This document shows, piece by piece, positions 1 to 59,521 of a DNA stretch of 64,000 bases. The translations under genes and the position numbers were made by a program. Within the stretch, counting starts at the first letter, position 1. The number at the start of each line of letters is the position of its first letter. Source of the DNA: Fomitopsis serialis (Eukaryota; Basidiomycota; Agaricomycetes; Polyporales; Fomitopsidaceae); the NCBI RefSeq assembly GCF_022376445.1, contig NW_025955124.1:1-64000 (forward strand). Reading direction: 5' to 3'. Under the pieces are notes generated by a model that was not told the origin of the DNA, did not search any database, and saw only the letters and a program-made list of their open reading frames with translations.

Positions 1-354
1 CCATGTCCAGATAACTCTGGAAACAATCCAGCTGAGTCCAGACTGGCTGCCGATCGTTGGCTGGCATAGTGGTGTGGACATGTGTTATGGCATGCTCCTC
101 TGGAATCGGCTGGGATTTGCGAAGACAGGTGAGATCGAGTGTTGTAACGGTTTCGTGCTCGTGTCACTGACCTGGAGTCGTGTCGTTGCCGTTACAACAT
201 TTGTTCTCAGGTGCATGTCGTTTCTGAGAGTGGTTCTCCCTCCGTGAGTTGGTATGTCGTCGCGCTCCCACACAGCATTCCAATCGCTCTGCGCCCCGCG
301 TCTCCATATGTCCTTGTTCAGGTCTCGAAAGTACATTCCGTTTGGGGCGAACAT
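1..354 (-). CDS. Cluster family member A (partial, unknown function)
   Basis: This is the first exon (172-354) and the start of the last exon (1-109) of a two-exon gene, cut by the window edge. Exon 1 encodes 61 residues beginning MFAPNG and ending in a Leu-Gln just before the intron. The intron (110-171, 62 nt) starts GTCAGTGAC, exactly as in the other family members, and ends CAG. The visible part of the last exon begins with Pro, as in B and E, but the repeat and tail region lies outside the window. An upstream intron (356-427) ends one base before the ATG, so an N-terminal extension is possible. The family is not recognised; assignment rests on exon structure and on conserved positions such as the Met-His-Leu-Arg near the exon end. 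Confidence 0.6.
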
Positions 355-1103
355 GCTGGCAATCGTGCTATGACGGAACTGATCAGGGATCAGGCGATCA
401 CACGAAGGTAGTCGCGTCGAGACTTACGCAAGAGCGAGGAGCGACGCAACGAGAAACACGACAAGTGCCGATTGTAGAACAACGCAAGAGGCTGCAAGTA
501 CCACGGAAGTATGGTGCGGACGGTGAGAGGCTCGTACCTCAGTCACCTGCTCTCGGATGGAAGCTGATGATGTGGATGTGTGTAGGGAGCAGACGACGAC
601 GACGACGAGCAGAAATGTGCGATAGCCACACGGGCGCTCACGTCCTCGTACGGGTCACGGGGTCTGAATGCACCAGGAGCGCGGGCTTCCTGCAAGGTCG
701 AAGGCGTGTCGAGACGCGAATTCAAATCAAACCTCCTTTGATATGCTTCTGACTGTCCGGGAGGTGCGGCTTTACGATCCTCACATTCGCAGGTGCGGTG
801 TCTTATTCACACTGGGACACAAATTGCAAAATTTGAAGCCCACATCTAGTGCAACGCTATCCGCCGTTCATCCATTATACTTACATTTCCGTATTTGACA
901 TCAGTTCCTAACAGTCTCTGCATTGTACCCCGCTCCACACCCCAGCCCACACCGACTGTTGCCCCTCCTTACCTTTGAGGGTTTGTGAGGAGGCCTACGC
1001 GCTTTGTTCAAACCAAGGATGTCAATTTGTGCTACTGGTCGATGCCTTTGTTATGACCTACCAAACCTAGCGCACGAAGTGCTCCATCCCCGGCGACTGA
1101 CAG
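355..1103. other. Intergenic region between A and A2, leader of A
   Basis: No independent gene is supported. The first part holds the phase-2 leader intron of member A (356-427, donor GTAAGTCTCGACGCG on the minus strand) and its upstream leader, including the family CCCGTGAC element near 654-661. A short GAC-type triplet run lies near 594-610. The remainder to 1103 shows nothing recognisable. Confidence 0.5.
654..661 (-). promoter_or_regulatory. CCCGTGAC leader element of member A
   Basis: On the minus strand the octamer CCCGTGAC is followed about 15 nt later by a GAGCGCCCGTG block. The same order occurs upstream of B, C, D, E and both F units. The partner ACGCRTC that lies 5 nt upstream in other copies is degenerate here (GTGCATT). 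It could be a DNA element or conserved coding sequence. Confidence 0.35.
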
Positions 1104-1839
1104 CTAATACACGGCGGGTCCTGGTTCCTGCCTGGATCCTCGACAGTGGACCAGCCTCACGGTTGCCTGTTCGCCCTCCCACCCTGGGATGCTTTCCAAG
1201 CTAACAGAGCTTGTCGTACTGCCAGACGTTGTGCGGTGATGAGCACCATGTCCAACAGTGCCTGCGTCTTCGCCTACGATCACTTCAGCCACTCACTCTG
1301 ATCGATATGGATGTTTCGAATAGCTCACCATCCATCTGCACGTCTTCGCCCGCGATGATCTGCCACGGTGTAACTCGGGTAAGCATCGTTGCATTGGATT
1401 ACTGCACGGGCTCACCTCTTCGTAGCCCATCGCATGGATGTTGACCTCCATTACGTACACCTCTTCAGGGAACTCACGCTCGAGATTCCCCATTTCATCC
1501 AGAATCTCCAAAGGCGGAAACACGCCGTCCGACACGAGACGAAGTGCGCCTCGAATTGCCCAATAACGAGTCGCAAAGCTGTCCTGCTCAGTCATGATGG
1601 GCTGGCATGCGACCTCAGGTGAGAACAGATCTTGTAACGGTACCATGCATGCGCCAACTGACCTTTTGTGGCTTTGTTGCCGTTTCGAAATCTGTTCTCA
1701 GGCCTGCCGCAGCGTCGGAGGAGTCGTCATTGTTGTATACGACTACACCAGGGCTTTGTGGTGCGTCCAAGTGTAGTGCTGCTTCTGGATCTTGTTCTCC
1801 GCGACAGGATATGAAACACGATTCATCCGATGTGTTCAT
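1104..1839 (-). pseudogene. Cluster family member A2, frameshifted
   Basis: This is a divergent family copy. Exon 1 (1663-1839) encodes 59 residues and ends before the family-type donor GTCAGT. Intron 1 is 1614-1662. Exon 2 (1416-1613) carries 66 codons without an obvious counterpart in other members. After a second intron (1360-1415), exon 3 encodes a motif matching the family repeat (ELFETSIS against EIFETSTT). It then needs a frame change near 1290-1300 to reach the matching AEVIVG segment and the serine-rich SGSTTSSVSLESIP tail. The conserved RTWADVV motif is not recognisable at the end. The frame break, or an unmodelled micro-intron, makes it a probable pseudogene. Confidence 0.55.
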
Positions 1840-2589
1840 TGTGAAATGACTCGTCTATGTTTGTTCAGCAGTGGCCGGTGACTTGGGACTATCGCGTCGA
1901 GACTTACTCAGTGGCGAGGGCACGCTGACGACAATCGCGATTTGGAGGTGTTCAAACTAGGATATGATAAGGCGGTGAGGTCTCAAGTAGCTGTTGTATG
2001 GCTGAGGATGGTTCTTACAGCCCGAGGCCTCTGTCACAGTGGACGATGCTGGTATGCGCAGAGAAGAATGTGGTGGCGAGGAGACTGAGAGAGGGTGCAG
2101 GCGCTTACGCGCCGTTGGCAATCACGAGATCGGGTGAGCTCAGGCTTTGTCGTCTCGTTCCTCGATTATTGCTGACAAGCTGCATAGATTATAGGAACTC
2201 CGTGTACGATGTGTATCGGACATGGGGCGTAATGAATGCAGTACGGTCAGCTTGTCATGATAGCGGTCCCTCGTCGTATTCATAGACTCGCTATGTTGTG
2301 AGCCATTGCTCATCCAGCGGCGTCTTTGTCTCATGGTGTTCAGGCCATGAACTCTCGCAGTGCCGCTCCTTCACAGAACAGAAACCCGCCGGGCGTGCTA
2401 GGGTGGATGTGGCTATCTGATATTACCGGAATGGACAGATAACCCTATGGTGAATGAACACGGAGTGGAGAAGGTTGGCGAGACAATTGATGGTCGAAAG
2501 CGAAGGTCAATAGAGAAGCAAGGGTCATTCCCTATTTTGATTTCTGTACTATTTTTTGCTCATGCTTCGCATCTCTTCGAGTGCAGGTG
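1840..2589. other. Intergenic, leader of A2 and unassigned DNA
   Basis: Near 1898-1917 the minus strand carries GTAAGTCTCGACGCG, the same leader-intron donor context seen in A and, with one change, in C. Beyond that I see no convincing gene; short open frames here lack family similarity and coding character. The left arm of the inverted duplication begins near 2590. Confidence 0.45.
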
Positions 2590-3250
2590 CGGAAGCTCGT
2601 CCGATCGAACAGGCCTTCGTACTCTCAGTACAGCTGTTGAACGGAGGACGGATGGTCAGGCTGGCGACGGACACCGAGATCGCTATGCTTCGACTGCCGT
2701 TGGTAAGTCTCATTCTATATGACTCTGTACATCGGCATAGACTTACCTATAGTCAAAGTGAGTTCTTCATTATGTGCGCGTACCGTTGTTTCGCCTTGCC
2801 CTCCAGTCTTCGACCGAGGCCACACCTGCAGTGCGAGGGCGCAGACCGCGTCGTGTGATCGTGATAGTGCACAACGTGAGCGATCACACTGCCTGCATTT
2901 TATTTGAAGCACCACTTACCTATCACCAGAGCTCCGGCATTACCTCTCCTCAAGAGACAACTACACGCGAAGAACGGCTCCAGTCCGAGCGGATTTCCTG
3001 GCACAGGAGCTTTTTGACCACTATGATCACAAGGCTTGCCATAGCAATTAATTTCAACGTGCTCCGGACCTGACAATCAACGTTGATGAGCTATGAGGCA
3101 GCTTAACACGCACCTTGGTCGCGACAAGACGAGGCGTCCATCCCACGAGCGATGCCACACCACCTTCCGAGGTGTACTGTGCGGCGTCAGATCCCGGATT
3201 AGGTGACGTCTTTTGTCTTCTCGGAGATGCTTGCAATTGATAGCCTCCGG
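2590..3250 (+). pseudogene. Decayed reading frame opposite unit F, left arm
   Basis: On the plus strand this end of the left arm has open stretches matching the minus strand of the right arm: a VQLLNGGRMVRLATDTE-like segment before a conserved GTAAGTCTCATTCTATATG donor context, a DNYTRRTAPVR segment, and a terminal LGDVFCLLGDACN followed by a stop. Between the last two the left copy contains several stops that are absent from the right copy. Whether this strand was ever coding is unclear, because the opposite strand is also open in part. No family was recognised. Confidence 0.3.
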
Positions 3251-3660
3251 CAGCGATAGAGGAAGGAGAACAAGGGACGAGGACGGTCACAAGCAATGAG
3301 CCTCATGTCGATGTGGGCGTCTACGCGCTGTTGAGGCGCGACGCGTTGGTCACGGGGACACGACGCGTTGCGTCTGCGTATCCGAGTCGGGGCCTGCGTC
3401 GTCTGGATGGTTGAACGGGGCGCGCAGTCGAATGTGGTATAAATCGAGTCCCCTCGCATCTACAGATGAACACATAATCCCGTGGATCTGCGTGTGGGCA
3501 GTCGGACCCGGGCGCTGGCGTCGATTTCATTGGTCGTGGCGGCGCACTCGCTTGCAAGAACAAAGAAATGGTATAGGAGCAGAAATGCGAATACAAGACG
3601 ATACATCGCTCGAGCCGTTCGCCGAGCATCCTTTTTTCCACCGTTTTCCGATCCGCCTTG
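3054..3660 (-). pseudogene. Unit F (left arm), decayed family unit
   Basis: Downstream of member B, in the same orientation, lies a second family-like leader: the CCCGTGAC element (3349-3356) with ACGCGTC exactly 5 nt upstream (3362-3368), and an open leader frame containing a SPRRQKTSPNP segment. The leader ends with LVATK and a possible donor GTGCGT. No intact 186-nt exon or ETSTT repeat follows. The right-arm counterpart at 12955-13600 has the same structure, so decay or loss of the coding part preceded the inverted duplication. Confidence 0.4.
3349..3368 (-). promoter_or_regulatory. ACGCGTC-N5-CCCGTGAC element, unit F left
   Basis: On the minus strand ACGCGTC is followed by exactly five bases and then CCCGTGAC. 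The same spacing occurs in C, D, E and the right-arm F unit. ACGCGT is the core known as the MluI cell-cycle box in yeasts; a function here is not shown. Confidence 0.4.
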
Positions 3661-3733
3661 CATTATGCCACTCCATTGCCTCTGTGACAACCCTAACTCG
3701 TACTTCACTGGATGCCTAGGTCGACCGCACGCC

Positions 3734-3789
3734 CTGAAAAGGAGCAGCCCGTCAATGCGCGCCATTCATCGCATATAACTTCGACTTAC
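3734..3789 (-). other. 3' UTR intron of member B
   Basis: Twenty-one nucleotides after the stop codon of B the sequence reads GTAAGTCGAAG and closes with CTTTTCAG, giving a 56-nt intron. The following exon starts GGCGTGCGGTCGACC, which matches the exon after the equivalent intron of E (CGCGTGCAGTCGACC). Confidence 0.55.
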
Positions 3790-3810
3790 CGGCTACGCGG
3801 AGAAGCTCGC

Positions 3811-4471
3811 CTACTTCCTGCCTCCAGTCTGGTTTCGGGGCGTGGCTCTGACCACCTCTGCCCAAGTCCTCACTCGCACGCTAGCATCCGGGATGCTCGC
3901 GAGGGTTGCCGAGCTCTGGGTACTCCCAGAATCTGTACGCTGGTGGGCACTGGGCATCCTAGACCCATAAGCCCTGCGGATCGTGCCGCCAATGATGTGT
4001 TCGGCCTCTTCGATGGTCGTAGAAGTTTCGAAAATCTCGTCGTCCTGCCACGCCAAGGGGTCCGTCGCCCCCCGCAGGGTACCTCCAACCATGGACTCGG
4101 CCTCATCGACAGCTGTCGATGTCTCGATGATCTCCTCGTCGTTCCACACGATATTGTCGGGTGCGCCGGCTGCCCCGCTGGCTCCGTGCTCGACCGCCTG
4201 AATGTCGATATCATCTGTTCCAATTGGCTGTTGTAGGAGAAAAGGTGAGATCAGACGATGTTACGGCTCTTGTTATGTCACTGACCTGGTGTGGCATTGC
4301 TGCCGTAACGTTTGCTGGTCTCAGGTGCATGTCCTGGTCGGAGGAGCCTCCGTCCTGGCATGTCGCTGGCCAATGCACAACCCAGCTACACGGTGCGTCA
4401 GGGTCCCTCCACAAGTTCGCATCTGGGTTTTGATAGAACACCCCGTTTGGCGCCAGCGTACTCCAAGACAT
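3811..4471 (-). CDS. Cluster family member B (unknown function)
   Basis: This two-exon gene predicts 200 residues. Exon 1 is 4286-4471 (186 nt, 62 codons), the intron 4228-4285 begins GTCAGTGAC, and exon 2 is 3811-4227. The last exon has two copies of an acidic repeat, W-N-D-E-E-I-I-E-T-S-T and W-Q-D-D-E-I-F-E-T-S-T, each followed by (V/I)-(D/E)-E-A-E and a GGT-(L/I)-R segment. Then comes a serine/threonine-rich GSTQSSATL stretch and a basic tail with RTWAEVVR. No signal peptide, membrane helix or known domain is visible. An upstream exon in frame (to about 4797) would join through a 59-nt intron (4473-4531) that puts Asn directly before the Met. It is the inverted-duplication partner of E. 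Function unknown. Confidence 0.65.
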
Positions 4472-4765
4472 ACTAATACGATACGATCAGTGATGAAGAG
4501 ACGATCTGTCAGAATATTTTTCAAAACGAACTTGTGGCGAAGTAACGACACGGCCGGCAACGACGGCGATAATTGTCCAGAAGAGAATGCAACGAACGTT
4601 TGTGGGGCAACAGAGGCGCGTGGTGTTGTAGGCAAGGTGAATCTCTTCGATATTCTGCACTTATACGAGGGCTGGCACCGCGTTGGTGGGCAGACAAAGG
4701 AAAGATCGCAGCAGCACGCACGAGTGCGCGACGGTTCGATATGGACGCTACTATGCGAACTATCG

Positions 4766-4785
4766 GTCACGGGATCTGGATGCGT
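4766..4785 (-). promoter_or_regulatory. ACGCATC-N5-CCCGTGAC element of member B
   Basis: On the minus strand ACGCATC, five bases, then CCCGTGAC lie upstream of member B. The reading frame through the element encodes Pro-Val-Thr-Asp-Ser-Ser-His, shared with E, so coding constraint is an alternative explanation. Confidence 0.35.
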
Positions 4786-5165
4786 GCAGAAAATCATGGA
4801 CGACGTTCACAGCAATGCATGAACTTGGATGCTATGGAGTTGGTGGCATTTGCGCTTGCAATGCGATGGTATCAGTGCGATCGGAGGTTCTCTAACAGTA
4901 CAGCATAATACAACACTCAGCGCGGAGGCGTCCATTTTGCGAGATCTTCACCGTCCCCTTAGCCTTGCATCATGCTATCTCTGGTTGCCCACGACAGCTT
5001 CAACCACTGGGTCCCAGCTGACTGTTGGGCTCACCCGAAGACGGTTAAACACCACAAACAACTCGTCAACAAACCTCACGATTCCATTTACCTCAATGTG
5101 TCAGCTACCAGGAAGAGGCAAGCCATGCCTCTTGACGGACGGGCCCCGCCTTCCTATTCTGCGGC

Positions 5166-5588
5166 CATGAATCGTATGTGAGTATTCCTCTTGACTTGAG
5201 GCCCGTGCCTACCTTGCCGCGGCGTCGTTCTTGATCAGATCAGTTAACAGCGTATGTAGATTGTAGGCCACTGGCACGGGTGTCACAATCGTGCGAGACT
5301 GCCAAAGATGCTTTCACAAGCTCTCAGGTGAGAGCAAGGATTATGAGGTTTTCACTATATCGTAGTTGTTACAACTATGCGGCAGCATCGCCGCAGCTAA
5401 ATTCCTCGCGCATGGAGCACTTGCGCCTCGTTGGTCACAATTTGAATGAACGAGCTTCATTTCCTGATACACTGTATGCGCCTCATTCCTATGTGATACA
5501 ATCTCGTCGCCGCGAAGATACATCAAAGTTCGTGAAGGTCATCAAGACACCACAGCCAGCCTTCGTGCTCACACGTGTACACCGCCGG
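5166..5588. other. Intergenic, nothing recognised
   Basis: This stretch lies between the outer end of the left duplication arm and the small two-exon gene on the minus strand. I see no gene, repeat or regulatory feature that I can support. Confidence 0.4.
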
Positions 5589-6118
5589 TCAGTGCGTTTG
5601 TCCCATGCGTCGTAGCACCTCCTCCCGGGCCGTACTGATCCAGACCTGCCGCTCGAGTCTTTTCACTTCCATTTCCACCTCGGATTGGGACGGCGGCTCT
5701 TGCATCACAATGGTTAGTGCGCCTCGGACCATGTTGCAGCACGTCTGGTACTCGTTCTCGGAAGCGGACTATCGTCGTGTTTCCAGGTGAGCATTGTGGA
5801 CGTCTTGGCAATGTCAGCATCGCTCACCGAACTCCGGTTTAGTGTTGTGGATCCCTGATCCCTTGCTCGGCCCGTCTTCGCTGGGATCGGCTGGGGAGCG
5901 TTCCTCAAGTTACATTGTGGCGTCTTCAGATCGTAGGCCGGTCCTCTGTGCTTGTAAATTCCTTTATGCTTGTAGGATCCTTTGCCAGTGTGCCTGTAAG
6001 ATGGAGACATCGCCGATACATTCTTGTTGTCCTGGGCCGGGCGAGGTAACATAGTTCGATGCAGTTCTGAGTGTGTGGCGCAAGCGTAGAAAGACGACAC
6101 AGCGCAACTGTCCCTCAA
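5589..6118 (-). CDS. Small two-exon hypothetical protein
   Basis: Exon 1 (5828-6118, 97 codons) and exon 2 (5589-5768) join in phase 0 across a 59-nt intron with donor GTGAGC and acceptor GATAG, giving 156 residues. The N-terminal half is rich in Ser, Lys, His and Tyr, with a YKHKGIYKHRG-type repeat. The C-terminal half is acidic to amphipathic and likely helical (EVEMEVKRLERQVW), ending in a Glu/Arg-rich segment. An internal Met about 22 codons in is an equally plausible start. No domain was recognised. It sits in the spacer between the duplication arms, and its exon 2 does not carry the cluster family's ETSTT repeat. Confidence 0.45.
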
Positions 6119-6606
6119 CTTCGTCTTATATACACGACGAGCCTTGCTCCCAGTGGCGATGACGGGGTTCTCCCGCCTGGGCTGTACAATAGACGGGGCA
6201 AAGCGCGTGCCAGTGTAATCAAGAAGACAGGGACAAAGGACGCAGTGGCAGGGAGAGACTTGGCGACGAAGTCCCAGGTTGTTATTCGCTACTTCTCAGC
6301 GTCATAATTGGGCGTACCAAGTAGCCATGAGGTGAACCTCGTGGGGTCCACGCATTCGAAGGCAAACTACTGAACCCGATCCAGGTCCGCATACGCGCTT
6401 TGACCGTGAAGATAGCAATATCCAGACCAAATTCCCGATATAGGCGTTCGCATCAATAAATACATCCATGTGCGGTATGCAATACAGTCTACAAACATTG
6501 CGAGTGTATGTGAGGGGGTAACAACAATCCGATCAGTGTACAGCAGCCCCGAAACGCAAGGCCAGGCGTGCCCGATCTCTCCAGTTCGATGGGCTCCTTT
6601 CCAACA
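6119..6606. other. Intergenic between small gene and OXR1 gene
   Basis: This is the upstream region of the small minus-strand gene and the 3' flank of the OXR1 gene. No further gene or repeat is seen. Confidence 0.4.
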
Positions 6607-8421
6607 TCATCCGACGCCCCACACCTCCAGCCCGACGCACTCGAATCTGACGTTCTCCCCCTGCCTCGGCCCCGCGGAGCAGAGCGGCTCGTTCTCAAAC
6701 GTAGGACATCGCGCGGACGAGCCGTCGTTCAGGGTATCGTCGAGGTAGAGGCCGTAGTGGCCATCTCTGCAACGCACGGATCAGCCAAGATTGAATGCAG
6801 ATCAATCGGGTACCCACCCTCCACCGAACGAGAGGTACTCTGGTTCGCAGAGTGCGACGTAGTCGTTTTTGCCCGTCCACTTGTATATCCTCACACGCTG
6901 GCCCGGCAGCAGCCTCCAGAGGAACCTACGAGCAGCAATGAGACACGCACCCAGACGATGCAAGGTCGATTAGACGTACGACTCGCCACTCCCGTAGTAC
7001 GCGCCCTTGCTCAGGTGTATGCCCTGCCCCATCCACACGCCAAACACCGCATCGCCCGAATCACGCATCACGACGAGCGCGCCCCCCGTATGGTTCTCGC
7101 ACCGCCTGTACAGCGTGTTCAGCGAGATCCCATGTTGGTCCAGGCTGTACAGGAGGTTCCACGCCCTTGGCAGTCGCGCCAGCGCCGGAAAATACGGCCT
7201 CAGCTGCCGGTACCTACGCATTAGTCGTGCGCAGACACCAGAAATTGAACACACACGCACCATATCTGCAAGCTCAACCGTCAGTACCGGGGTCGTCATC
7301 TCCTTCCGCCCCACCAGCCGCACGCTCTTCCTCTCCGAGTTGCTCTTCTCGTACGCGTCTGAGAAGCCCTTGTCCCACTTCCTGTCCCCGTCGAAACCCG
7401 GCGCGCCACTCGCAGGCACGAACGGCGCCACGGCGAACGGTGTCCCGTGTGTGATCGCGGAGTCCAGCGCAGCTGACTGGAAGAGGTGCGCGGGTAGAGT
7501 GGATGCGTGCGCAGGCGAGAGCGGCGCGGAGACGGTGCCGTTGTGTGCGAGTGCGGACCCTTCGTCCGTGGAGCGCGTCCGCCCGGAGCGCACGGTGCCG
7601 GAGAGGAGGGAGGACACCCAGCGGGCGGGGCCGTACGCGGGCGGTGAGAAAAACGACTGGCCCTGCGCGCGCTCAGGCTGTATCTCGGGTGGGACGGGGC
7701 GTGGGGGTGTGGGTGGCGGCAGGGAGGGCGAGCGGACGAAGCCGGTTGGGCGCGAGGACGAAGGTGAGAGGTTCAGCTCGGACCGGTTGTCTTGTCGGTG
7801 CAGTTGGCGGGATTGGCGGGTATCGGCGGAAGAGTCTAGAGAAGTAGAGGGCGATGGGGAGGTCACGGGGATGGGCGCGTCGGGCAGGAGGTCGAGGAGG
7901 GAGACCTCGGACTGCGGCTGTGGCGTGCAGTGCCCCGTTGGGAGCGGAGAGGGGATGGGCGTTGTATGCCTGCTCGTACTCGCGGTGGGCTCACCGTTGT
8001 CTAACGAACTCAGGAAGTAGAATGGGTCATTCTCCGCCTTCAACAGCTCGTCGAGCACGTCGTGCTTGCTCTTCTCGTTCGCCGCCTTGGCGTCCTCCGC
8101 GAAGCGATCAAAGAAATCCGCCTGCATTCCTTCAATGGGTGAGAAACCATCTTTCGAACTACCGGAGCCAAGTGGGTCGTCGGTCGCGGGTACCGAAACG
8201 AATGCGCCAAAGTCGGAGTTCGTCGATTGGTTGCGCGTGTGAGCGCCAGGCCGCGACGCAGCGGTGTCCTGCTTGACGGGGGGCGCAGGCGACGCATGAG
8301 GTGTTGGTGGTTGGAATAGTGTCGCAAAGAGGTCATCTTGGGAAGATGCGTCTGAGGTGGTAGCAGCAGAAGGCGGGATTGCGGATTCAGGAGGAAGCGG
8401 GATCAGCGGTGTCGGTAGCAT
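6607..8421 (-). CDS. OXR1: OXR1-like TLDc-domain protein
   Basis: Four exons (7261-8421, 6980-7203, 6818-6925, 6607-6766), with introns of 57, 54 and 51 nt, close into a 550-residue frame. About 370 N-terminal residues are low-complexity, rich in Pro, Ser and Thr. The C-terminal part is a complete TLDc domain: LRPYFPALARLPRAWNLLYS, LDQHGISLNTLYRRC, a FGVWMGQGI strand, GSGESFLWRL, and a final block GDGHYGLYLDD, RCPTFENEPL and GLEVWGVG. TLDc proteins of the OXR1 type protect against oxidative stress and in fungi bind the vacuolar V-ATPase; that role is inferred from the family. An in-frame stop lies just upstream of the chosen Met. The gene sits inside the spacer of the inverted duplication and appears intact. 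Confidence 0.9.
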
Positions 8422-9169
8422 CGTGCTCGCGATCGTCTACCCGAGCTTCCTTAGCGCATCCAGCTTGCGATCGTCCTGCCGTACGAAGAACTCTCGAAAA
8501 GCGGATAGTTGGGCGTAGAGAGGGTACGCGGTCACCTTGAAACCAACGAAATCTGTGCGCCGAAGGCTGAGCGCTGAGCGACCACCGCCCATCCATGTTG
8601 GGTAGATGTGCTCACTTTGATGTCTGTATCACAGTCGAGACTAAGACAGACACAGGTCGTTGACGCACAGATCGTCAGCACGGGATGAGACGAGAGAGGA
8701 TGAGGTCTGGAGGGAGAGTGGTCGACTGAGTCGCGGTCGAACGCGACCGTCGTAACTGCTGACCAGCGCTTAAAGCAACGATGATACACGCACATCCTGG
8801 ACCGGCGCTTAATATACAGTACGTCCGCGTCGTCAGTCCCAAGGCGCGGGCTATTCGCGTTTCTGTGTAGATGTACTGTCTATCACACATCTCTCAGGTA
8901 GAAGAACATCACAGGAAGACACATAGGAGTGGGAGGGAAAATTGCGAGCTCGAAAAAGCGCATTTGGCAGTATCGATTGTTATAAGTAGGGCTTACTATC
9001 TACTTATATGCGCTATGAACTGAACTGAACTGATTAAGAACGACGCCACGGCAAGGTATGCACGGACCTCCTCTATACACCGTCCAGAGAAAGACACGCT
9101 TTCGGTCTCAAACATTGCTCGTGCAACCGTCCATGAACTTCGTGACTTCCGCTTGACTTCCGCGCCCAA
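8422..9169. other. Divergent intergenic region between OXR1 gene and member C
   Basis: This region contains the upstream DNA of the minus-strand OXR1 gene and the start of the member C leader. A short direct repeat (GAACT three times, about 9017-9031) is visible. No gene is supported. Confidence 0.45.
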
Positions 9170-9189
9170 ACGCGTCGAGATCCCGTGAC
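9170..9189 (+). promoter_or_regulatory. ACGCGTC-N5-CCCGTGAC element of member C
   Basis: ACGCGTC, five bases (GAGAT), then CCCGTGAC. The spacing is identical to D, E and both F units. The frame through it encodes Thr-Arg-Arg-Asp-Pro-Val-Thr-Asp, continuous with a leader exon that joins C in phase. Confidence 0.4.
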
Positions 9190-9474
9190 TGACAAACAGA
9201 CGTGTAAGCGCCCGTACTGCACCAAGCCACACTTCTCCGTTTCGCCACTGTCCCCTTTGTACACCGCCACGCCATCGACACCCATCCCAGAGGAGGAGAC
9301 CGTTACATGTCGCCCTTTCTGTCTCCCCATACAGAGTTGTTGCTTTGAAGCCTCTGTTGGTCTTGTACGCTCCGCAATTGTTGCTCCCATCACCTCATTG
9401 CCACTGATATTCGAGTAAGCCTCGACGCGATTAATCTCGCGTCGCACCTTCACCGCTAATCAGATCATCACAGA

Positions 9475-10068
9475 ATGACTTCTGCCGAGCTAGCATCGAA
9501 GAGCTTGTTCTTTCAAAGCGTAGAAGACAACGTCTGGAGGATCGACATACCGAGTAACTGGAACGTGCCACAGCACAACAGCACAACAGCGAATGGAAGC
9601 TCTCCACACCAGGTCGTGCACCTAAAACCAGCCACCAGTACGGCACCGATGCAATGCCAGGTCAGTGACACACACATAAAGCTGTAATGGTGTCTGGTCT
9701 CACTTCTTTGTCCCCAGATCGGTGCTGCCCCGGGCGACGGTGTTCGGAACGACAACGAAATACGAGAGTCGTCACCAAGACTCGACATCGCCGAGTCCTT
9801 GATCAAGAGCTCCCTCTGGAGGGCCGCGAACGATGGCTGGTGGATGGACGACGACGCCGTGGAGACGTCCACAACCATATACGAGGCGCGAAGTGCCTTC
9901 CATAGGACTGTAGGGTCTGGGCGGCCCACTATCCATCGGCGCACGAGCTTTGGGAGCACCCAGAGTTCTTCCAGTCTCGAAAGCCTGCCCAGGGAGGATA
10001 TACAGACTGTCAGCGGACGCTCGAGAACCTGGGCAGACGTAGTGAGGGCCACTTCGCGGAAGGCGTGA
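9475..10068 (+). CDS. Cluster family member C (unknown function)
   Basis: Exon 1 is 9475-9660 (186 nt), intron 9661-9717 (57 nt, GTCAGTGAC...CCCCAG) and exon 2 9718-10068, giving 178 residues. Only one acidic repeat is present (W-M-D-D-D-A-V-E-T-S-T-T-I-Y-E-A), where B and E have two. The tail keeps the family pattern: HRRTSFGSTQSSSSLESLP followed by RTWADVVRATSRKA. An upstream leader exon (about 9185-9414) joins through a 59-nt intron (9415-9473) and would place Glu before the Met in frame. C and D are adjacent tandem copies in the same orientation. Function unknown. Confidence 0.65.
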
Positions 10069-10102
10069 CTTGTCAATTAAGGTCTTCTTGGCCGACGCGA
10101 TG

Positions 10103-10158
10103 GTAAGCCTGAGTCGGGGTTTGCTGTTCATGACACATGTCGACGTGGTGGTGAACAG
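10103..10158 (+). other. 3' UTR intron of member C
   Basis: A 56-nt segment from GTAAGCCTGAG to GTGAACAG begins 34 nt after the stop of C. Equivalent introns follow B, D and E. Confidence 0.5.
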
Positions 10159-10471
10159 CCTGGCTGCCTTCTCCGAACAAATCCGACGGCCAGCTAGGAT
10201 CTGGCTAGAGTTATCACAGGGGGGCGGACGTAGCACAATGCAAGGCGAATTTCGGATTGATGTGTAGTGTTGTACTAGTAGAGCCTCCGATTGCATTTCT
10301 TCACGCTACCCTGAGAGCGAGGCATAGAACTTCGAGCGAGCGACTGGAGTAACAACAGCGTCAGAAATCACCATGACGCAAGAGCGAGACCTGGGCCAAA
10401 GACAGGATTCTAGGCTCATACACCGCTGGCAACATCGTCTACGGATATCGCGAGGCATTTTCGCGCTGCAG

Positions 10472-10491
10472 ACGCGTCAGGGTCCCGTGAC
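10472..10491 (+). promoter_or_regulatory. ACGCGTC-N5-CCCGTGAC element of member D
   Basis: ACGCGTC, AGGGT, CCCGTGAC upstream of D, with the same five-base spacing as C, E and both F units. The leader frame through it reads Thr-Arg-Gln-Gly-Pro-Val-Thr. Confidence 0.4.
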
Positions 10492-10767
10492 CAAAAGTGA
10501 ACATTTAAGCGCCAATACCCAACCATCGCCGCGCACTTGTCTTCGCCACTGCGATTCTTTGTCCATCGCTCTGCACCCTTGGCACCTGTCCGAGTACAAA
10601 AGTCAGAGAAAAACAATGACGCTATACATACCACATGATTCTGGTATTCCACAACCACTATCCTCGTTCTGCACTGCACAGTTGTGGCCGTCGCCATCGG
10701 CCCACGAGTATGTTTCGACGCCATCCTCTATGCCGTGTCGCTTCATCGCTGACCATATCATTATAGC

Positions 10768-11449
10768 ATGCCGTTGAAGGAGCTAGCTGCGAACGGCTTG
10801 TTCTCTCAAAGCACGAAGGACAACATTTGGAACGTCGACATACCAAGTAGCTGGAACGTGACCGAATATCCTAGAGCAACTACAAACCAGAATCCTTCGC
10901 ATCAGGCGACGTCCCTGAAACCAAACCCCCATACGGCAAGCACCCAGAATCAAGTCAGTGATACAGACACGGAGCCGTATTGTGGTTTGGCCTCACCTTT
11001 CTTTTCAGGTAGTCGAAGGCGAACCAACCACTGCCACTACACGAATCGATGAAGCACTCAACAACTTCAGTTGGGATGACAGCGAAATTTTAGCCACATC
11101 GACGGTCGTAGACGAGGCTGATAGCGCGATCGGGGGCTCCCTACAGAGAGCCATGAGCGACAGCGAGTGGAGAGACGACGATGTCTGGGAGACATCAACA
11201 ACCATCTACGAGGCGGCGCTCGTCGCTGGAGTTGTGTTTGAGAGGACCGTGGGGTCTGGACGGGCCGTCACCCACCGGCGAGTGGGCTCTGAGAGTACTC
11301 AGAGCTCTGCTAGTATCGAGACCCTCCACGGAGATGGGGACAGCGTGCGTCCAAGGACTTGGGCAGACGTGGTTCGATTCGGTTCCTTGGGCAAGAATAG
11401 GAAGACGGAGCCTGCCCGTCAAGGGGCATGGCCTGCCTTATTCTGGTAG
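10768..11449 (+). CDS. Cluster family member D (unknown function)
   Basis: Exon 1 is 10768-10953 (186 nt), intron 10954-11008 (55 nt, GTCAGTGAT...TTTCAG) and exon 2 11009-11449, giving 208 residues. The last exon contains two acidic repeats (W-D-D-S-E-I-L-A-T-S-T-V-V-D-E-A and W-R-D-D-D-V-W-E-T-S-T-T-I-Y-E-A), a SESTQSSASIETL stretch and RTWADVVR. It is longer than the others, with a GKNRKTEPARQ-type extension before the stop. That extension also survives at the outer end of the left duplication arm (about 5115-5165). The leader intron 10708-10766 is again 59 nt and phase 2. The first exon is closest to C (FFQS/FSQS, DIPS-NWN/SWN), suggesting C and D are tandem sisters. Confidence 0.65.
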
Positions 11450-11462
11450 CTGATGCATTGAG

Positions 11463-11527
11463 GTGAGCTGGGATCGTTAGGTCTGCTTTGTAATGCGTGT
11501 TGACGAGCCGTTGTTTGTGGTGTTCAG
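11463..11527 (+). other. 3' UTR intron of member D
   Basis: A 65-nt segment from GTGAGCTGGG to TGTTCAG begins 13 nt after the stop of D. Confidence 0.5.
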
Positions 11528-11828
11528 CCGTCGCTGGGCCTCCGTGGCTGGAGTTGTCGTGGGTAACTGAAGATGGTATAATGATAATGCAAGGCCATGG
11601 GAGTAATGATATCGCGCAATGGAGGCTCCGCGCGCTGTTCGAGTGTTGTATTATGCTGTACTGTTAGAGATCCTCCGATCGCATTCGTCCTGACTCTTTC
11701 TTGAGAGTGAGCGATGTGACAGGCACTTGAGACCATCGCGTCGCAAGCGCAGGAGCCAACCAACTCCAGAGCATCCAAGGTCATAGCTTGCTGCCGACGT
11801 CGTCCGAGAGGCATTTCTGCGCCCTCGG

Positions 11829-11848
11829 ACGCGTCCATATCCCGTGAC
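11829..11848 (+). promoter_or_regulatory. ACGCGTC-N5-CCCGTGAC element of member E
   Basis: ACGCGTC, CATAT, CCCGTGAC upstream of E, with five-base spacing as in the other copies; the leader frame reads Thr-Arg-Pro-Tyr-Pro-Val-Thr-Asp. Confidence 0.4.
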
Positions 11849-12142
11849 CGATAGTTCGCATATTAGCGCCCATACCGAACCGTCGCGCACCCGTCCTCGC
11901 CGCTACCATCTTTCCTTTGTCTGTCCACCAACGCGCCGTCAGCCCTCGTATAAGCGCAAAATATCGGAAGGTCTCGCCTTCCTTACAACACTGCGCGCCT
12001 CTGTTGCCCCACAAGCTCTTGCCACATTCTCCTTTGGACGATCCTCGTTGTCGTCGTCGTCCAAGTCGTTACCTCGTCACAAGTAAGTTCTGAGGTATAT
12101 CCCAATAGATCGTCTCTTCATCACTGATCGTATCGTATCAGC

Positions 12143-12809
12143 ATGTCTTGGAGTACGATGGCACCAAACGGAGTGTTCTATCAAAGCCCATATGCGAACT
12201 TGTGGAGGGACCCTGACGCACCGTGTAGCTGGGTTGTGCATTGGCCGACGCTATGCCAGGACGAAGACTCCTCCGACCAGGTCATGCACCTGAGACCAAC
12301 CGAAATTACGGCAGCAATGCCACCGCAGGTCAGTGACATAGCCAGAGCCGTAACATCGTTTGATCTCACTTTTTTTCTTCGCAAACCAGCCGGTCGCCAC
12401 AGCCAACGTCGAGACCCTGGTTGTCGAACATGAACCAGCCGTCGCACCCGATGCACTCGAAAACCTCGTATGGAACGAGGACGAGATCGTCGAAACGTCG
12501 ACGACTATCGACGAAGCCGAGTTTATGGCTGGCGGTACCATCCGAAGGGCGATAGACTCCTTGGCGTGGCGGGAGGATGAGATCCTGGAAACCTCGACGG
12601 CCATTGATGAGGCCGAACGCATCGTTGGGAGTACGCTCCGTAGGGCTTCTAGGTCAGGGCTGCCGACTGCCCGCCACCGCCGCACAGACTCCGGCAGCAC
12701 CCAGAGCTCAGCGACGCTGCAGAGTATCCCGGATGCTAGCGCGCGCGTGAGGACTTGGGCGGACGTGGTCAGAAGCGCGGCCCAGAGACAGAGCGGAAGC
12801 AGGAAGTAG
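12143..12809 (+). CDS. Cluster family member E (unknown function)
   Basis: Exon 1 is 12143-12328 (186 nt), intron 12329-12389 (61 nt, GTCAGTGAC...AAACCAG) and exon 2 12390-12809, giving 201 residues. Two acidic repeats are present (W-N-E-D-E-I-V-E-T-S-T-T-I-D-E-A and W-R-E-D-E-I-L-E-T-S-T-A-I-D-E-A), followed by SGSTQSSATLQSIP and RTWADVVR. It is the duplication partner of B, and the leader exons of E and B (about 12027-12082 and earlier) stay open with equal length and no frame-shifting indel. The leader intron is 12083-12141 (59 nt). Predicted soluble and acidic in the repeats, basic at the end. Function unknown. Confidence 0.65.
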
Positions 12810-12851
12810 GGGTGAATCGACGGGCAGCAGGCAACCTTGTCCTGGCAGCGG

Positions 12852-12914
12852 GTAAGTCGAGGTCCTTATACATGCCATGGGTAGTCTGTATTGACGAGCT
12901 CTTCCTTTTTTCAG
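12852..12914 (+). other. 3' UTR intron of member E
   Basis: A 63-nt segment from GTAAGTCGAGG to TTTTTTCAG begins 42 nt after the stop of E. The next exon starts CGCGTGCAGTCGACC, like that of B. Confidence 0.55.
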
Positions 12915-12954
12915 CGCGTGCAGTCGACCAGGGCATTCAGCAAATTACGAGTTA

Positions 12955-13620
12955 GGGCAGTCGCGTGGGGAAGGGGTGTGGCACAATGCAAGGCCTATCG
13001 GAACGTAGGAAAGGGATGCTCGGCGAACGGCTCGAGCGATGCATTGTCTTGTATTCTCATTTTTGCTCCTATCCCATTTCTTTCTTCTTGCAAGCGAGTG
13101 CGATGCCACGACCAAGGAACGACGTCAGCGCCCGGGTCCGACAGCCCACAGGCTAAACCGCGGGACTACAGGTTCACCTGTAGATATGATGAGACTCGAC
13201 TTATACCACACCATTGAGTGCGCGCCCTGTTCGACCATCCAAACGACGTAGGCCCAGATACGCAGACGCAACGCGTCGTGTCCCCGTGACCAACGCGTCG
13301 CGCCAACAGCGCGTAGACGCCCACATCGACATGAGGCTTGCTGCTTGTGACCGTCCTCGTCCCTTGTTCTCCTTCCTCTACCATTGCCGGGAGACATCAA
13401 TTGCAAGTGTCTCCGAGAAGGCAAACGACGTCACCTAATCCGAGACCAGACGTCAAACAGTACGCCTCGGAAGGTCGTGTTGCATCGCTTGTGGCTCGTG
13501 GCAAGAACGCCACTCGTCTTGTCGCGACCAAGGTGCGTGTTGAGCTGAATTGTAGCTCATTCGCGTTGATTTTCAGGTCCAGATACGTCGGAATGTCTTG
13601 ACATGGCAAGTCTTGTGGTT
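12955..13620 (+). pseudogene. Unit F (right arm), decayed family unit
   Basis: This is the counterpart of the left-arm F unit. It has the family leader element, an open leader frame with SPRRQTTSPNP and LVATK before a possible donor GTGCGT, and a possible acceptor TTTTCAG at about 13571-13577. The ATGTCTTG that follows resembles the ATGTCTTGG start of E, but the frame stops at once (TGA). No ETSTT repeat or RTWADVV tail follows. It is best read as a family unit that kept its leader and lost its body. Confidence 0.4.
13271..13290 (+). promoter_or_regulatory. ACGCGTC-N5-CCCGTGAC element, unit F right
   Basis: ACGCGTC, GTGTC, CCCGTGAC with the same five-base spacing as the intact copies. Confidence 0.4.
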
Positions 13621-13777
13621 TTGTTAGTCGAAACATTCCTTTGCGAAGAAGACCCGAACGGACTGGAGCCGTTCTTCGCGTGTAGTTATCTCTTGAGGAG
13701 AGGCGATCCCAGAGATCTGGCGCCAAATGATAGGTAAGTAGTGCTTGAGATGAACTGCAGGTAATGCGATCGCTCAC
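13397..13777 (-). pseudogene. Unassigned open frame opposite unit F, right arm
   Basis: An open frame of about 110 codons on the minus strand ends LGDVVCLLGDTCN. The left arm retains the same terminal residues and the DNYTRRTAPVR segment but is interrupted by stops between them. The sequence matches no family I can name. It may be a relic gene converging on E or a chance frame opposite unit F. Confidence 0.25.
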
Positions 13778-14070
13778 GCGTGCGCCATCATGATCCCACG
13801 ACGCGGTCTACGCCCTCGCACTGTAGGTGTGGCCTCGGTCGAACACTGGAGGGCAAGGCGAAACAACGCCACGCACACATGACGAAGAACTCACTTCAAG
13901 TCCAGGTCAGTTCATACCGGCACACAAAGCCATATAGAATGAGACTTACCAACGGCAGCCGAGGCACACAGTGCTCTCGATGTCCGTCGCCAGCCTGACC
14001 ATCCGATGTCCGTCCAACAGCTGAACTGAGAGCAGTGTTCGATCAGACAAGCTTCCAACCCTACGCTGGA

Positions 14071-17000
14071 AGAGCTACGGTAGTACACGCGTTGTTTGTC
14101 TGCCAGCGGTTCGCTTGACGGTGAGGGCCAGGGCCCAGTGACCGCGATGGTAAGTCGTCGCCCTCGCGCAAGACATCATTTGTTTCAAGCCTCTAAGAGT
14201 TCTGTGAACTTTTCATTCAGTGACGGGCCGCTGGCGAGTTCATGATGCTCTACTGCACATTCCGCATCGAGCGATCGAACCAAGAAAACCACGTACGCTT
14301 CAGTGTTATGCCCCATTCAAAACCGGATTTCCGGAGATCTCCCCCATACAACTCGTGTTGCAGATCAACCGACGACGAGTGTCAACAGAATCGAGGTCGG
14401 TGGTTGCGCTGAAGGGCGAAGGACAGAAGGGCGGACGATCAAGGTGCGATAGAGGTCTCGTGGATCGGATGTCCCCAAGATGTCCCTTTGCTCACGAGAC
14501 TCCTCCTCCCGGCGCTGCAGACTCTTGAGCAACTTCGAAGTGCGGGGCAGCACGTTGGGCCCTCCGAGGCCTCGAAGGGGTCAGAAAGGGTCAGAAAAAA
14601 TGACTGCTACCCGGTTGACCTGGAATCGACCTGCTGGCGCAGCGCGAGGGCGAGGATGGCTACAGCCGAGCAAGTCGCTGGAGTCTGCTCATAAAAACCG
14701 GACGTGCCAGAGTCAAGAGGTTCAGGGCAGCACAGGTAGTAGGCCACGACCACAGCAGCAGGTTGCATATTAGCAGTGGATGGAGGGCGAGGTGGTCCAG
14801 GGGGGAATAGACGCCCGAAGAGACCCGGGTGGCGTGTTTGAATTGCAACGCGTCTCGCGCGGCCAGTGGCGTCTGCAGCCTTAAGCTTAGTCTGAGACTA
14901 CGACCACGTCTACTCAACGCCTACTGCTCCCAGTCAGCCCGGAATCATGTGCTTAGTGCACTGCTGGTAAAGAACTTCGAACGATCATAAACATGATCAC
15001 AAATGGCGGTACACGATCTCGGTACAATAACTCGATTGGAGCTGGGGTCAACGCATCAGTGCAGGTTTCAACGAAGACACACTGGCCGTCGAACTGCCAA
15101 AGCATCCCGGCATTGAAACCAGGTCAGCTCACCGACTCTCAGGATCTTGGTTATGGGGAATCAACGTGATAGCCTATACGAGAGGCGAGCCAGCACGTCG
15201 GATGCTGAGCCTTGTAGCGATGTCTACTTACCTCCCATGAGTGATGCGACAGGGCGGTGAGTTTTTAATATTACGCCTCAACAGGTGGAGCTACAGGCAA
15301 TTTCTGGAAACGCTGATAGTCTTCTTCCCGCTAGCTTCCACTGACGCACCTCGAGAATCGCCTCTTTCACGAAGAAAACAATGTCACGTACGCCCCGTTG
15401 ACGCTGTCCCCTTGAGATTGTTTAACTTGAAGCGAGATCATGTCCGCACGGATGATGATCCTGCTGCATGCTACTCACTATCAGATGCCCACTGTTTCTT
15501 GTCGCGGCCTTCACGTAAGTTGTCAGGGCTCGTGCTGCGGACACACGGACAACTTTCTAAGCGGCCACGCCCGAAATGACATAAGACTGGAAGCAAACGC
15601 TCCGGTAGCGTGCCCACCGGTGTCACGGTTGACGACTTCCAGTGCAACCTTCCGGCGACGATCCTGCAAGTGTGATATCAAGACGCCCGCGGCCAATTGG
15701 AATCAGCGTGAAGATCGACTGAGGAATTGAATCTTGCGCCGGATTCTTGCCGCCCGTGTCTGTCTGGTTGGACGCACATTGACGTCGACGATCCAATGCA
15801 ATAAGGTTCGGCCATACAATAGGTCGGACGTCCCTTCAAGGCGGGCTGATCGCGGGCAGTGTGGAATACGGTGCGCACTGTTGTTGTGCTACACGCGTTG
15901 TGCTGACGTTCGGTGATTCAAGTGGTACTGTCGGACAAGGCGAGTGAGTGTTAAGCAATGCTGTCAAGATGATGAGTGTCTTTATTACTATTCTTGTTAT
16001 AGACGCTGTTCGACATTCGTCTACAGTTCACACAAAATGGCAACACGGTAGTGTGCGATTCCGTGACCCATGATGTGATCTTGGTGGGGATTAGGACGGT
16101 CAAGGACTACGGTAGTAGCAACATTATAAGTACTTAGACAGTATTCTGTTCTCTTCCATTAGTTCCAGAGATATAAGGTACCCCACAAAGCGATAGTTTT
16201 CGAGATGCTCAAAGATGCTCAATGTGTGCGAAGGACCCAAGGAGACAACGACATCGTGTCTATTTCCAAATGCGGTTCATTGAACTTTTGAACTCCGCCC
16301 GCGCGAGCCAATCACAAAATGAGCGCAGCGCACAAATGCCTCGCCTGCCTGGCGTGTGCGGTGTCACAGTTCGTCAGCGCGTCAGCTCGCTCGTTCAAGT
16401 TGCCGTCTACCATCTCGTCGCCGCTCTCACCGCGTTCTCGACCAACGTCCGCCTCCGTCCCTCAGCCACCTTGCTCGTGGAGTGCCAGCGAGACGCATTG
16501 ACCTGAAACATGCGGAACATCATGCTCACCGCCACGATGATCAATACGACGGTGGACATTGGGCGCATATAGTCTGTCCTCGAAGCCACTCTCCCACTCG
16601 GAGATAACGACGCTCTTCATTTAGTCTTCCCTCTGAGATCTGGAACAAGCTACGACCGTCACAAGGCCTCGACACTAATACGACTATGCGTATTGGACGA
16701 ACGGTGGGGCATTGCCATGATATCTAGGTTTTGGGTGGCAGTCGAGATTCACGAAGCATAGTCTGCTGTCGACAGGGTGAGGGATAAAGAGTGTAACGGA
16801 GACACAGGTATGTCTCCCTTCTCGCACGATTGCCCACTGACCTGTCGAGTGGGAGGACACCCTCACGAAGCTCGACCGCACGGTAAGTCATTTTACAGCA
16901 TATACGGCGCGTCTGTCCGGAGCTCTGGCTCTGCAGCGCCTATATCCGAACATGCTAGCCGCCTCGGAGGCGTATCGAGTGGGGGTTTACCTCACGAAGC

Positions 17001-59073: not shown

Positions 59074-59521
59074 GTTGGTCTCTCTCTGGCGAAGGAGAGG
59101 TTGGCCGTTGCCTGTATTCCGTACCGTAGGTGTGTTTCTTATGTTTGTAGTTGCCGTTGCTTTCAGACCTCACGCTACAACGATCCGCGTGAGGTGGAGG
59201 CCGCTCCTGGACCTCTCAGGCGACATGCTAGGGTCGATTCGTCGGCCGTCGCTTAAGTCTCTCGACCGGGCAAGTCTACAAGTGCCCGTCGCTAAGGAGA
59301 AAAGGTTTGCGTCTATGAGGGCTTTCCTGTCCCGACTCGCGGTCAGTATATTTGGGCCGACGTTTGGCGCATCCCTTGGTTAGTGACTCATTTCTTTCCG
59401 GTCGTGTGCTTAGGATGAGACCGTATTACGGTGTCGGAAGTAAGACCTTGTTCATACATACATGCGACTGCGCGGTCGTTACATGAGGATGATGGTGTCT
59501 AGATTGTACGTTACGAGTTTC

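What the first reader, a model, noticed from the sequence alone, without database searches (positions are those of the whole stretch)
1..13620. Unrecognised multi-copy protein family with rigid exon architecture
Six copies (A, A2, B, C, D, E) and two decayed units lie within 13.6 kb. Four have a first exon of exactly 186 nt, a first intron beginning GTCAGTGA in phase 0 at the same codon, and a last exon ending with RTWA(D/E)VVR and a basic tail. Protein sequences have diverged widely while the gene frame stayed fixed and open, which suggests selected function rather than junk. I know of no described family with this motif set.
Basis: partly seen in the sequence, partly recalled or inferred. 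Interest (0 to 1): 0.75.

Follow-up and report, generated by a model that had tools for sequence, protein, structure and literature searches.

The report
Undescribed fungal small-protein gene family
A cluster of small genes in a brown-rot bracket fungus belongs to an undescribed protein family, found so far only in close relatives, whose copies keep the same gene layout, promoter core and reading frame although their proteins have drifted far apart.

Summary
The window is Fomitopsis serialis DNA: copy A's spliced product equals a deposited protein. Four copies (A, B, C, D) are open in both haplotypes, each with a 186-nt first exon and a phase-0 GTCAGTGA intron, 8 of 8. A fifth, A2, is cut by the contig end and seems to continue on contigs C542/C499, which hold two more genes. 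E is not a convincing gene; two further units look decayed.

The genes are real: paralog dN/dS is 0.23-0.39 (10 pairs of 5 genes); shifted sense frames give 0.86-1.29 (2 pairs). All 7 paralogs tested have a CCCGTGAY box about 300 nt upstream and an intron-end signal one base before the ATG. A two-box pattern occurs 12 times in 66 Mb, 10 of them at these genes.

No significant Pfam or PDB match; homologs came only from Fomitopsis, Rhodofomes and Daedalea, plus two unnamed contigs. The proteins look mostly disordered, with conserved short motifs and, in some, a three-helix segment. Function is unknown; phospho-regulated adaptors are my best guess.

The parts
1..354 (-). Copy A2: exon 1 354-172 (183 nt), intron 171-110, exon 2 from 109, cut by the contig end; last exon appears to lie at the right end of contigs C542/C499
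   Evidence: the C545 homolog aligns to both contig ends at adjacent bases
633..661 (-). Two-box promoter block of A2
1149..1850 (-). Decayed-looking unit: middle-exon segment 1601-1425 (E 7.5e-26, but it helped build that profile), exon-3 relic 1298-1149 (E 1.6e-6), exon-1 relic very weak (E 2)
2573..3368 (-). E' unit: promoter-like block at 3368-3349, no frame conserved with E
3811..4471 (-). Copy A: exon 1 4471-4286 (186 nt), intron 4285-4228, exon 2 4227-3811; 200 aa, identical to P0001 (B0H18DRAFT_1145524)
4766..4785 (-). Promoter block of A (one mismatch to the 20-nt form)
5610..5768 (-). Middle-exon relic of a second decayed unit (E 2.2e-5)
5120..5140 (-). Copy-C-like C-terminal tail (RQEAW) of the same decayed unit
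6970..8436 (-). TLDc-domain (OXR1-like) gene in the middle of the cluster; neighbour, not a family member
   Evidence: PF07534, E 3.2e-13
9170..9189 (+). Promoter block of B
9475..10068 (+). Copy B: exon 1 9475-9660, intron 9661-9717, exon 2 9718-10068; 178 aa
10472..10491 (+). Promoter block of C
10768..11449 (+). Copy C: exon 1 10768-10953, intron 10954-11008, exon 2 11009-11449; 208 aa
11829..11848 (+). Promoter block of D
12143..12809 (+). Copy D: exon 1 12143-12328, intron 12329-12389, exon 2 12390-12809; 201 aa (204 in the other haplotype)
13271..14230 (+). E unit: promoter-like block and transcript-like layout, but no frame conserved between haplotypes or with E'
2573..5160 (-). One arm of an inverted segmental duplication (77% identical to 11394-14074) carrying A and E'
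11394..14074 (+). Other arm of the inverted duplication carrying D and E

Best explanation
A protein-coding multigene family, so far seen only in Fomitopsidaceae, that evolves by tandem and inverted duplication, decay of some copies and probably gene conversion. It encodes small proteins (178-278 aa by my models), probably intracellular and mostly disordered, with conserved short motifs (consensus; single copies depart): an N-terminal NG-x-[FY]-x2-[SN]-x3-[ND]-[IVL]-W element, one or two W-x-D-D-E-[IV]-x-E-T-S-T-T repeats, a Ser/Thr patch around R-T-x-S-G-S-T-Q-S-S, and a C-terminal W-x-x-[VI] helix. Some members add a three-helix segment encoded by a middle exon. The 7 copies tested share a promoter core, so they are probably expressed together. 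Shown: coding status, purifying selection, shared promoter core, intron signals kept in place, restricted distribution in the searches made. Inferred: transcription and splicing, co-expression, conversion. Guess: they act as phospho-regulated motif adaptors or inhibitors in which the Ser/Thr patch gates binding by the Trp elements. My probabilities: real selected gene family 0.95; restricted to this fungal family 0.75; adaptor or inhibitor by linear motifs 0.2.
For: Paralog dN/dS 0.23-0.39 in 10 of 10 pairs of A, B, C, D and C542a (A2 and C542b not run), upper bootstrap limits at most 0.63. Control for 2 of these pairs: shifted sense frames 0.86-1.29, true frame 0.34 and 0.31. Pooled alleles of the 5 genes 0.37 (0.24-0.56) over 1056 codons. 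A/D coding indels: 3 of 3 multiples of three, against 6 of 30 outside, Fisher p 0.015, or 8 of 32 and p 0.025 if the intron and stop-codon indels count as outside. CCCGTGAY 281-312 nt upstream in 14 of 14 haplotype copies; leave-one-out matrices over the 20-nt block find it as the top site in 7 of 7 paralogs. Two-box pattern: 12 sites in 66.2 Mb, 10 at family genes (5 genes in 2 haplotypes), 6 for the reversed control. AG one base before the ATG in 14 of 14; donor exactly at -60 in 8 of 8 copies of A-D. 3'UTR donor 13-42 nt past the stop in 4 of 4. Homologs only in F. serialis, R. roseus, D. quercina and two unnamed contigs. Cys 0-5 and highest 19-residue hydropathy mean 1.53 in 13 products. 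Model mean pLDDT 54; 64 of 285 residues at 70 or above.
Against: No expression data. Single-gene allele values are noisy: B 1.8 (7 changes), D 0.67, C542a 0.65; without C the pooled value is 0.48 (0.27-0.92). Exon 1 of A/D and A/B gives 0.83 and 0.77 (B/C 0.31, C/D 0.43), so constraint there is weak or blurred by conversion. The promoter block was picked by eye and anchored on its core, A and D are recent duplicates, box 1 (ACGCRTC) is present in only 5 of 7 paralogs, and AGCGCC in 5 of 7; A's other allele has AGGGCC. A's 5'UTR donor is the unusual GTTCGT, added to my pattern after I had seen it. Low pLDDT may reflect alignments of only 9 and 6 sequences rather than disorder; the three-helix segment scored 65-84 in one model but 54-61 in the other. 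1.53 in C542a is close to the usual membrane-helix cut-off (1.6, recalled). Nothing tests the adaptor idea. The protein search needs shared 5-residue words and reached its candidate cap, so distant homologs may be missed.
Confidence: 0.55

Rival explanations
1. A selfish or self-recognition gene family (meiotic drive or allorecognition) whose copies diverge because they conflict with each other or with the host.
For: Tandem birth and decay within a narrow clade; one allele of C542b carries a stop; haplotypes differ by 6-17% per 500-base bin at 10-12 and 13-15.5 kb against 0-7% in the other bins of the first 20 kb, and gene C lies in this tract (exon 1 13.4%, exon 2 7.9%); one shared promoter core.
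Against: At most one near-threshold hydrophobic stretch; no significant Pfam match; purifying rather than diversifying signal, gene C's alleles included (0.28); exons of A, B and D differ by only 0-3.6% between haplotypes and the highest bins are E and its flank.
Confidence: 0.1
2. A remnant of a transposon-encoded protein (gag or LINE ORF1) spreading as a repeat.
For: The short W-A-x-V-V motif recalls some LINE ORF1 proteins (from memory); a LINE lies in the same window.
Against: No similarity to the window's two LINE proteins; DNA of the D unit finds 13 places, all in the cluster contigs or C545; intron, UTR-intron signals and promoter core are conserved.
Confidence: 0.03
3. Neutral or young orphan ORFs: duplicated DNA whose open frames are chance.
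For: Several units are broken or decayed-looking; exon-1 dN/dS is near 0.8 in two of four comparisons; single-allele values are noisy.
Against: In-frame indels, dN/dS 0.23-0.39 with shifted-frame controls near 1; homologs with the same motifs in two other genera.
Confidence: 0.05
4. Derived from a known regulator whose sequence has drifted beyond detection, the middle exon being its old folded domain.
For: The middle-exon segment is the part predicted with most confidence and is shared by F. serialis, R. roseus and D. quercina proteins.
Confidence: 0.25

Closest known systems
Uncharacterized proteins B0H18DRAFT_1145524, _963832 and _520878 (Fomitopsis serialis)
   Same: The first is copy A itself, letter for letter; the second matches the C499a product over 251 residues with other ends; the third is read from C499 near 23.0 kb, where I place A2's last exon
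   Different: No name, domain or function given; my three searches returned no deposited product for B, C or D
EVJ58_g7094, EVJ58_g1390, C8Q71DRAFT_753548 (Rhodofomes roseus)
   Same: Same motif order; 37-44% identity to P0006; two carry the middle-exon segment, one of them in part
   Different: Closest F. serialis matches are C542a/C499a, not window copies A-D
DAEQUDRAFT_766767 and _766789 (Daedalea quercina)
   Same: Same kind of motifs, best identities 36% and 30%; contigs of equal length, so probably one contig
   Different: _766767 has, by my reading, a doubled exon-1-like segment and STASS in place of STQSS
wtf spore-killer genes of fission yeast (recalled)
   Same: Works-like comparison only: clade-restricted, multi-copy, several exons, decayed copies
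   Different: No set of membrane-spanning stretches here; no drive evidence

Membership tests
Family defined here (Fomitopsidaceae ETSTT/STQSS family) | ETSTT-type repeat, STQSS patch and C-terminal W-x-x-[VI] element in one protein | tested here: met
   A, B, C, D, C542b (DTSTT), three R. roseus proteins and P0009. Not fully met: C542a keeps repeat and patch but reads TGADV at the W position; P0007 reads STASS
Family defined here (Fomitopsidaceae ETSTT/STQSS family) | Phase-0 intron after a Gln codon closing exon 1 | tested here: met
   14 of 14 F. serialis haplotype copies examined; not testable in the other species, where only proteins were seen
Any Pfam, NCBIfam or PDB family | Significant profile or sequence match | tested here: not met
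   Pfam: 5 members of A1 (best E 0.013, below its cut-off) and 9 of A3 (best E 0.035); NCBIfam best E 0.012 in 1 of 9; PDB 0 matches at E 10 for A1
Known fold for the middle-exon segment | Clear structural match | tested here: inconclusive
LINE or gag proteins | Sequence similarity to the element's proteins | tested here: not met
   Only this window's LINE was compared: P0001 against the gag-like ORF, best E 3.2; P0006 against the reverse transcriptase ORF, best E 0.94
wtf-type spore killers | Several transmembrane helices | tested here: not met
   Hydropathy only: highest 19-residue mean 1.53 (C542a), the other genes at most 1.09
wtf-type spore killers | Biased transmission | not testable with these tools
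   Needs crosses
Fungal lipopeptide pheromone precursors | C-terminal CaaX box | tested here: not met
   Tails end GGRK, SRKA, ALFW, GSRK in A-D
Small secreted effector-like proteins | N-terminal signal peptide and Cys-rich body | tested here: inconclusive
   0-5 Cys, and the most hydrophobic 19-residue stretch is not N-terminal in any of 13 products; no signal-peptide program was run

The most novel reading that the evidence does not exclude
A clade-restricted family of co-regulated disordered proteins that takes part in nonself or drive-like conflict: copies are duplicated, converted and lost, while one private promoter core fires them all together, so that a wood-rot fungus carries a fast-turning set of intracellular motif proteins with no counterpart described elsewhere.
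Probability: 0.08. Interest if true: 0.75.

Novelty: new member of a known kind. Interest (0 to 1): 0.42.

Why it matters
Clade-restricted multigene families are a known kind; this one can be shown from sequence to be selected rather than noise. It comes with a promoter pattern found almost nowhere else in the genome, intron signals held in place in the coding and untranslated parts, and a series of intact, diverging and decayed copies in two haplotypes. That makes it a good case for asking how a young fungal family keeps its regulation while its proteins change, and a clear target for a deletion experiment.

Tried and rejected
Rejected: transposon protein; chance ORFs; pheromone precursor and membrane-bound driver; secreted effector thought unlikely but not excluded. 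The E-type units were checked as a second gene type: they are duplicated with the genes (C542a_dn against C542b_dn 82% over 1.7 kb) but the frames break where I looked; left as decayed or non-coding. The promoter block was followed to other sites: 3 of 10 zero-mismatch sites of the 20-nt form lie elsewhere (C112, C223, C527); ORF lists near two of them showed no family member to my eye, and the profiles found nothing in the 8 stretches fetched. Fold searches gave no usable relative: all 35 Foldseek matches had E of 0.94 or more, and no chain stood clear of the helical-bundle background. Papers: the locus tags gave 0 papers; 'Polyporales' with 'orphan genes' and 'tandem' 1 listing, not opened; 'Neoantrodia serialis' with 'genome' 8 listings, none opened.

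Statements on CaaX, wtf, LINE termini, the 1.6 hydropathy cut-off and Daedalea's family are recalled, from no call.
Full report
Source. The window is contig C73 of a 66.2 Mb, 806-contig assembly; C114 is taken as its allelic contig, 93% identical over the first 15.3 kb and 98.6% beyond about 16 kb. Copy A's product equals P0001, B0H18DRAFT_1145524 of Fomitopsis serialis, letter for letter, and P0006 of the same species sits on a contig as long as C499, 23,166 bases. F. serialis and R. roseus are Fomitopsidaceae; Daedalea's place there is recalled.

Inventory. From left to right: A2 (-, cut by the contig end), a decayed-looking unit (-), E' (-), A (-), a second decayed unit (-), a TLDc-domain gene (-), then B, C, D and E (+). 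A-E' and D-E are arms of one inverted duplication at 77%. A2 appears to continue on C542/C499: a homolog on C545 aligns to the C73 start and the C542 end at adjacent bases, and to C114 and C499 likewise, to within one base. The deposited protein P0010 is read from C499 at about 23.07 kb downward, the place of that last exon. C542/C499 add C542a (three exons, open in both haplotypes) and C542b (three exons, open in C542, stopped in C499). C545 holds further units, one with, by my reading, a broken exon 1.

Coding evidence. NG86 dN/dS for all 10 pairs of A, B, C, D and C542a is 0.23-0.39, upper bootstrap limits at most 0.63. For A/D and B/C the other two sense frames give 1.09, 1.29 and 0.86, 1.09; antisense frames give 0.40-1.44, the lowest in each pair being the one that shares third positions. 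Alleles singly: A 0.15, B 1.8, C 0.28, D 0.67, C542a 0.65, several with few changes; pooled 0.37, without C 0.48. Between A and D the 3 indels inside coding sequence are multiples of three, against 6 of 30 outside; this leaves out the indels at the stop codon, in the intron and at the alignment ends. With the first two counted as outside it is 8 of 32, p 0.025. A/D exon 1 has dS 0.13 against 0.76 for exon 2, which suggests conversion of exon 1.

Architecture. Exon 1 is 186 nt in A-D (8 of 8 haplotype copies), 183 in A2 and C542b, 177 in C542a. The donor is GTCAGTGA in 12 and GTTAGTGA in 2 (C542a, C499a) of 14 copies, phase 0, after Gln in 14 of 14. A 5'UTR donor lies exactly at -60 in A-D (8 of 8; A's is the unusual GTTCGT, which I added to the pattern after seeing it), at -73, -56 and -79 in A2, C542a and C542b, and an AG ends one base before the ATG in 14 of 14. 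A 3'UTR donor lies 13-42 nt past the stop in the window's A-D. These are sequence signals, not observed splicing. Copies A-D lack the middle exon found in C542a, in the decayed units and in R. roseus and D. quercina proteins; A2 and C542b have a short middle exon of other sequence.

Promoter. A core CCCGTGAY starts 281-312 nt upstream of the ATG in 14 of 14 copies of 7 paralogs. Five bases before it stands ACGCRTC in 5 of 7 paralogs (not in A2 or C542a), and 15-17 bases after it AGCGCC in 5 of 7, with one-base variants in A and C542b. Leave-one-out matrices of the 20-nt block recover it in 7 of 7, with the caveat that the block was picked by eye and A and D are recent duplicates. The pattern CCCGTGAY-N13-17-AGCGCC occurs 12 times in the genome, 10 at A2, B, C, D and C542a in both haplotypes; the reversed control gives 6. 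A 20-nt form of box 1 and core with up to two mismatches is far less specific: 106 sites against 39 for the control.

Protein. Three database searches returned 10 proteins: 3 F. serialis, 3 R. roseus, 2 D. quercina, 2 from unnamed contigs of JGI sources. No significant Pfam, NCBIfam or PDB match. AlphaFold2 on P0006 (9 sequences) gives mean pLDDT 54.1, with block means of 65-84 over residues 61-130 (three helices); a second run on P0005 (6 sequences) predicts three helices there at 54-61. Low scores elsewhere fit disorder but may also come from the thin alignments. Fold searches are inconclusive. Intact F. serialis products are 178-278 aa, pI 4.5-6.5, highest 19-residue hydropathy mean 1.53 (the stop-bearing allele's short product left out of the length and pI ranges).

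Haplotypes. Divergence per 500-base bin is 6-17% at 10-12 and 13-15.5 kb, 0-7% in the other bins of the first 20 kb, and near zero in the TLDc gene. Gene C lies in the divergent tract; A, B and D do not. This gives the conflict reading some support.

Reading. The family is real and selected, undescribed in the papers and libraries searched, and narrow in distribution. How it works is not shown. The conserved parts are short motifs in what looks like disordered chain, which fits motif-based adaptors or inhibitors gated by phosphorylation; I put that at 0.2. Drive or self-recognition remains possible at about 0.1, with little direct support.

Noticed in passing
window 10001-12000 and 13001-15500: Haplotypes differ by 6-17% per 500 bases here, against 0-0.2% over 7001-9000 (most of the TLDc gene) and 0-2% from 16 to 20 kb.
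   Followed up: partly
window 7274-8436: 0 substitutions in 1163 aligned bases between haplotypes in the TLDc gene, in the middle of a divergent region.
   Followed up: no
window 13271-13290, 3368-3349; C542:11335, 18669; C545:64828, 138398: E-type promoter-like block on the same strand downstream of family genes or relics; the unit seems to travel with the gene but I found no conserved frame.
   Followed up: partly
window 54664-62110 (-): LINE-like element: reverse transcriptase and endonuclease ORF, with a gag-like ORF upstream (that label is my reading).
   Followed up: no
C73 and C114 starts, C542 and C499 ends: Both haplotypes' contigs break at the same codon of A2, so the assembly splits one cluster and P0010 is deposited as a separate short protein.
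   Followed up: yes
window 3811-4471 and 12143-12809: A and D: synonymous divergence 0.13 in exon 1 but 0.76 in exon 2, as if exon 1 had been converted.
   Followed up: no
L024 1534-2328 (-): A homeodomain-like reading near a stray 20-nt block on C112; the label is my reading, not tested.
   Followed up: no
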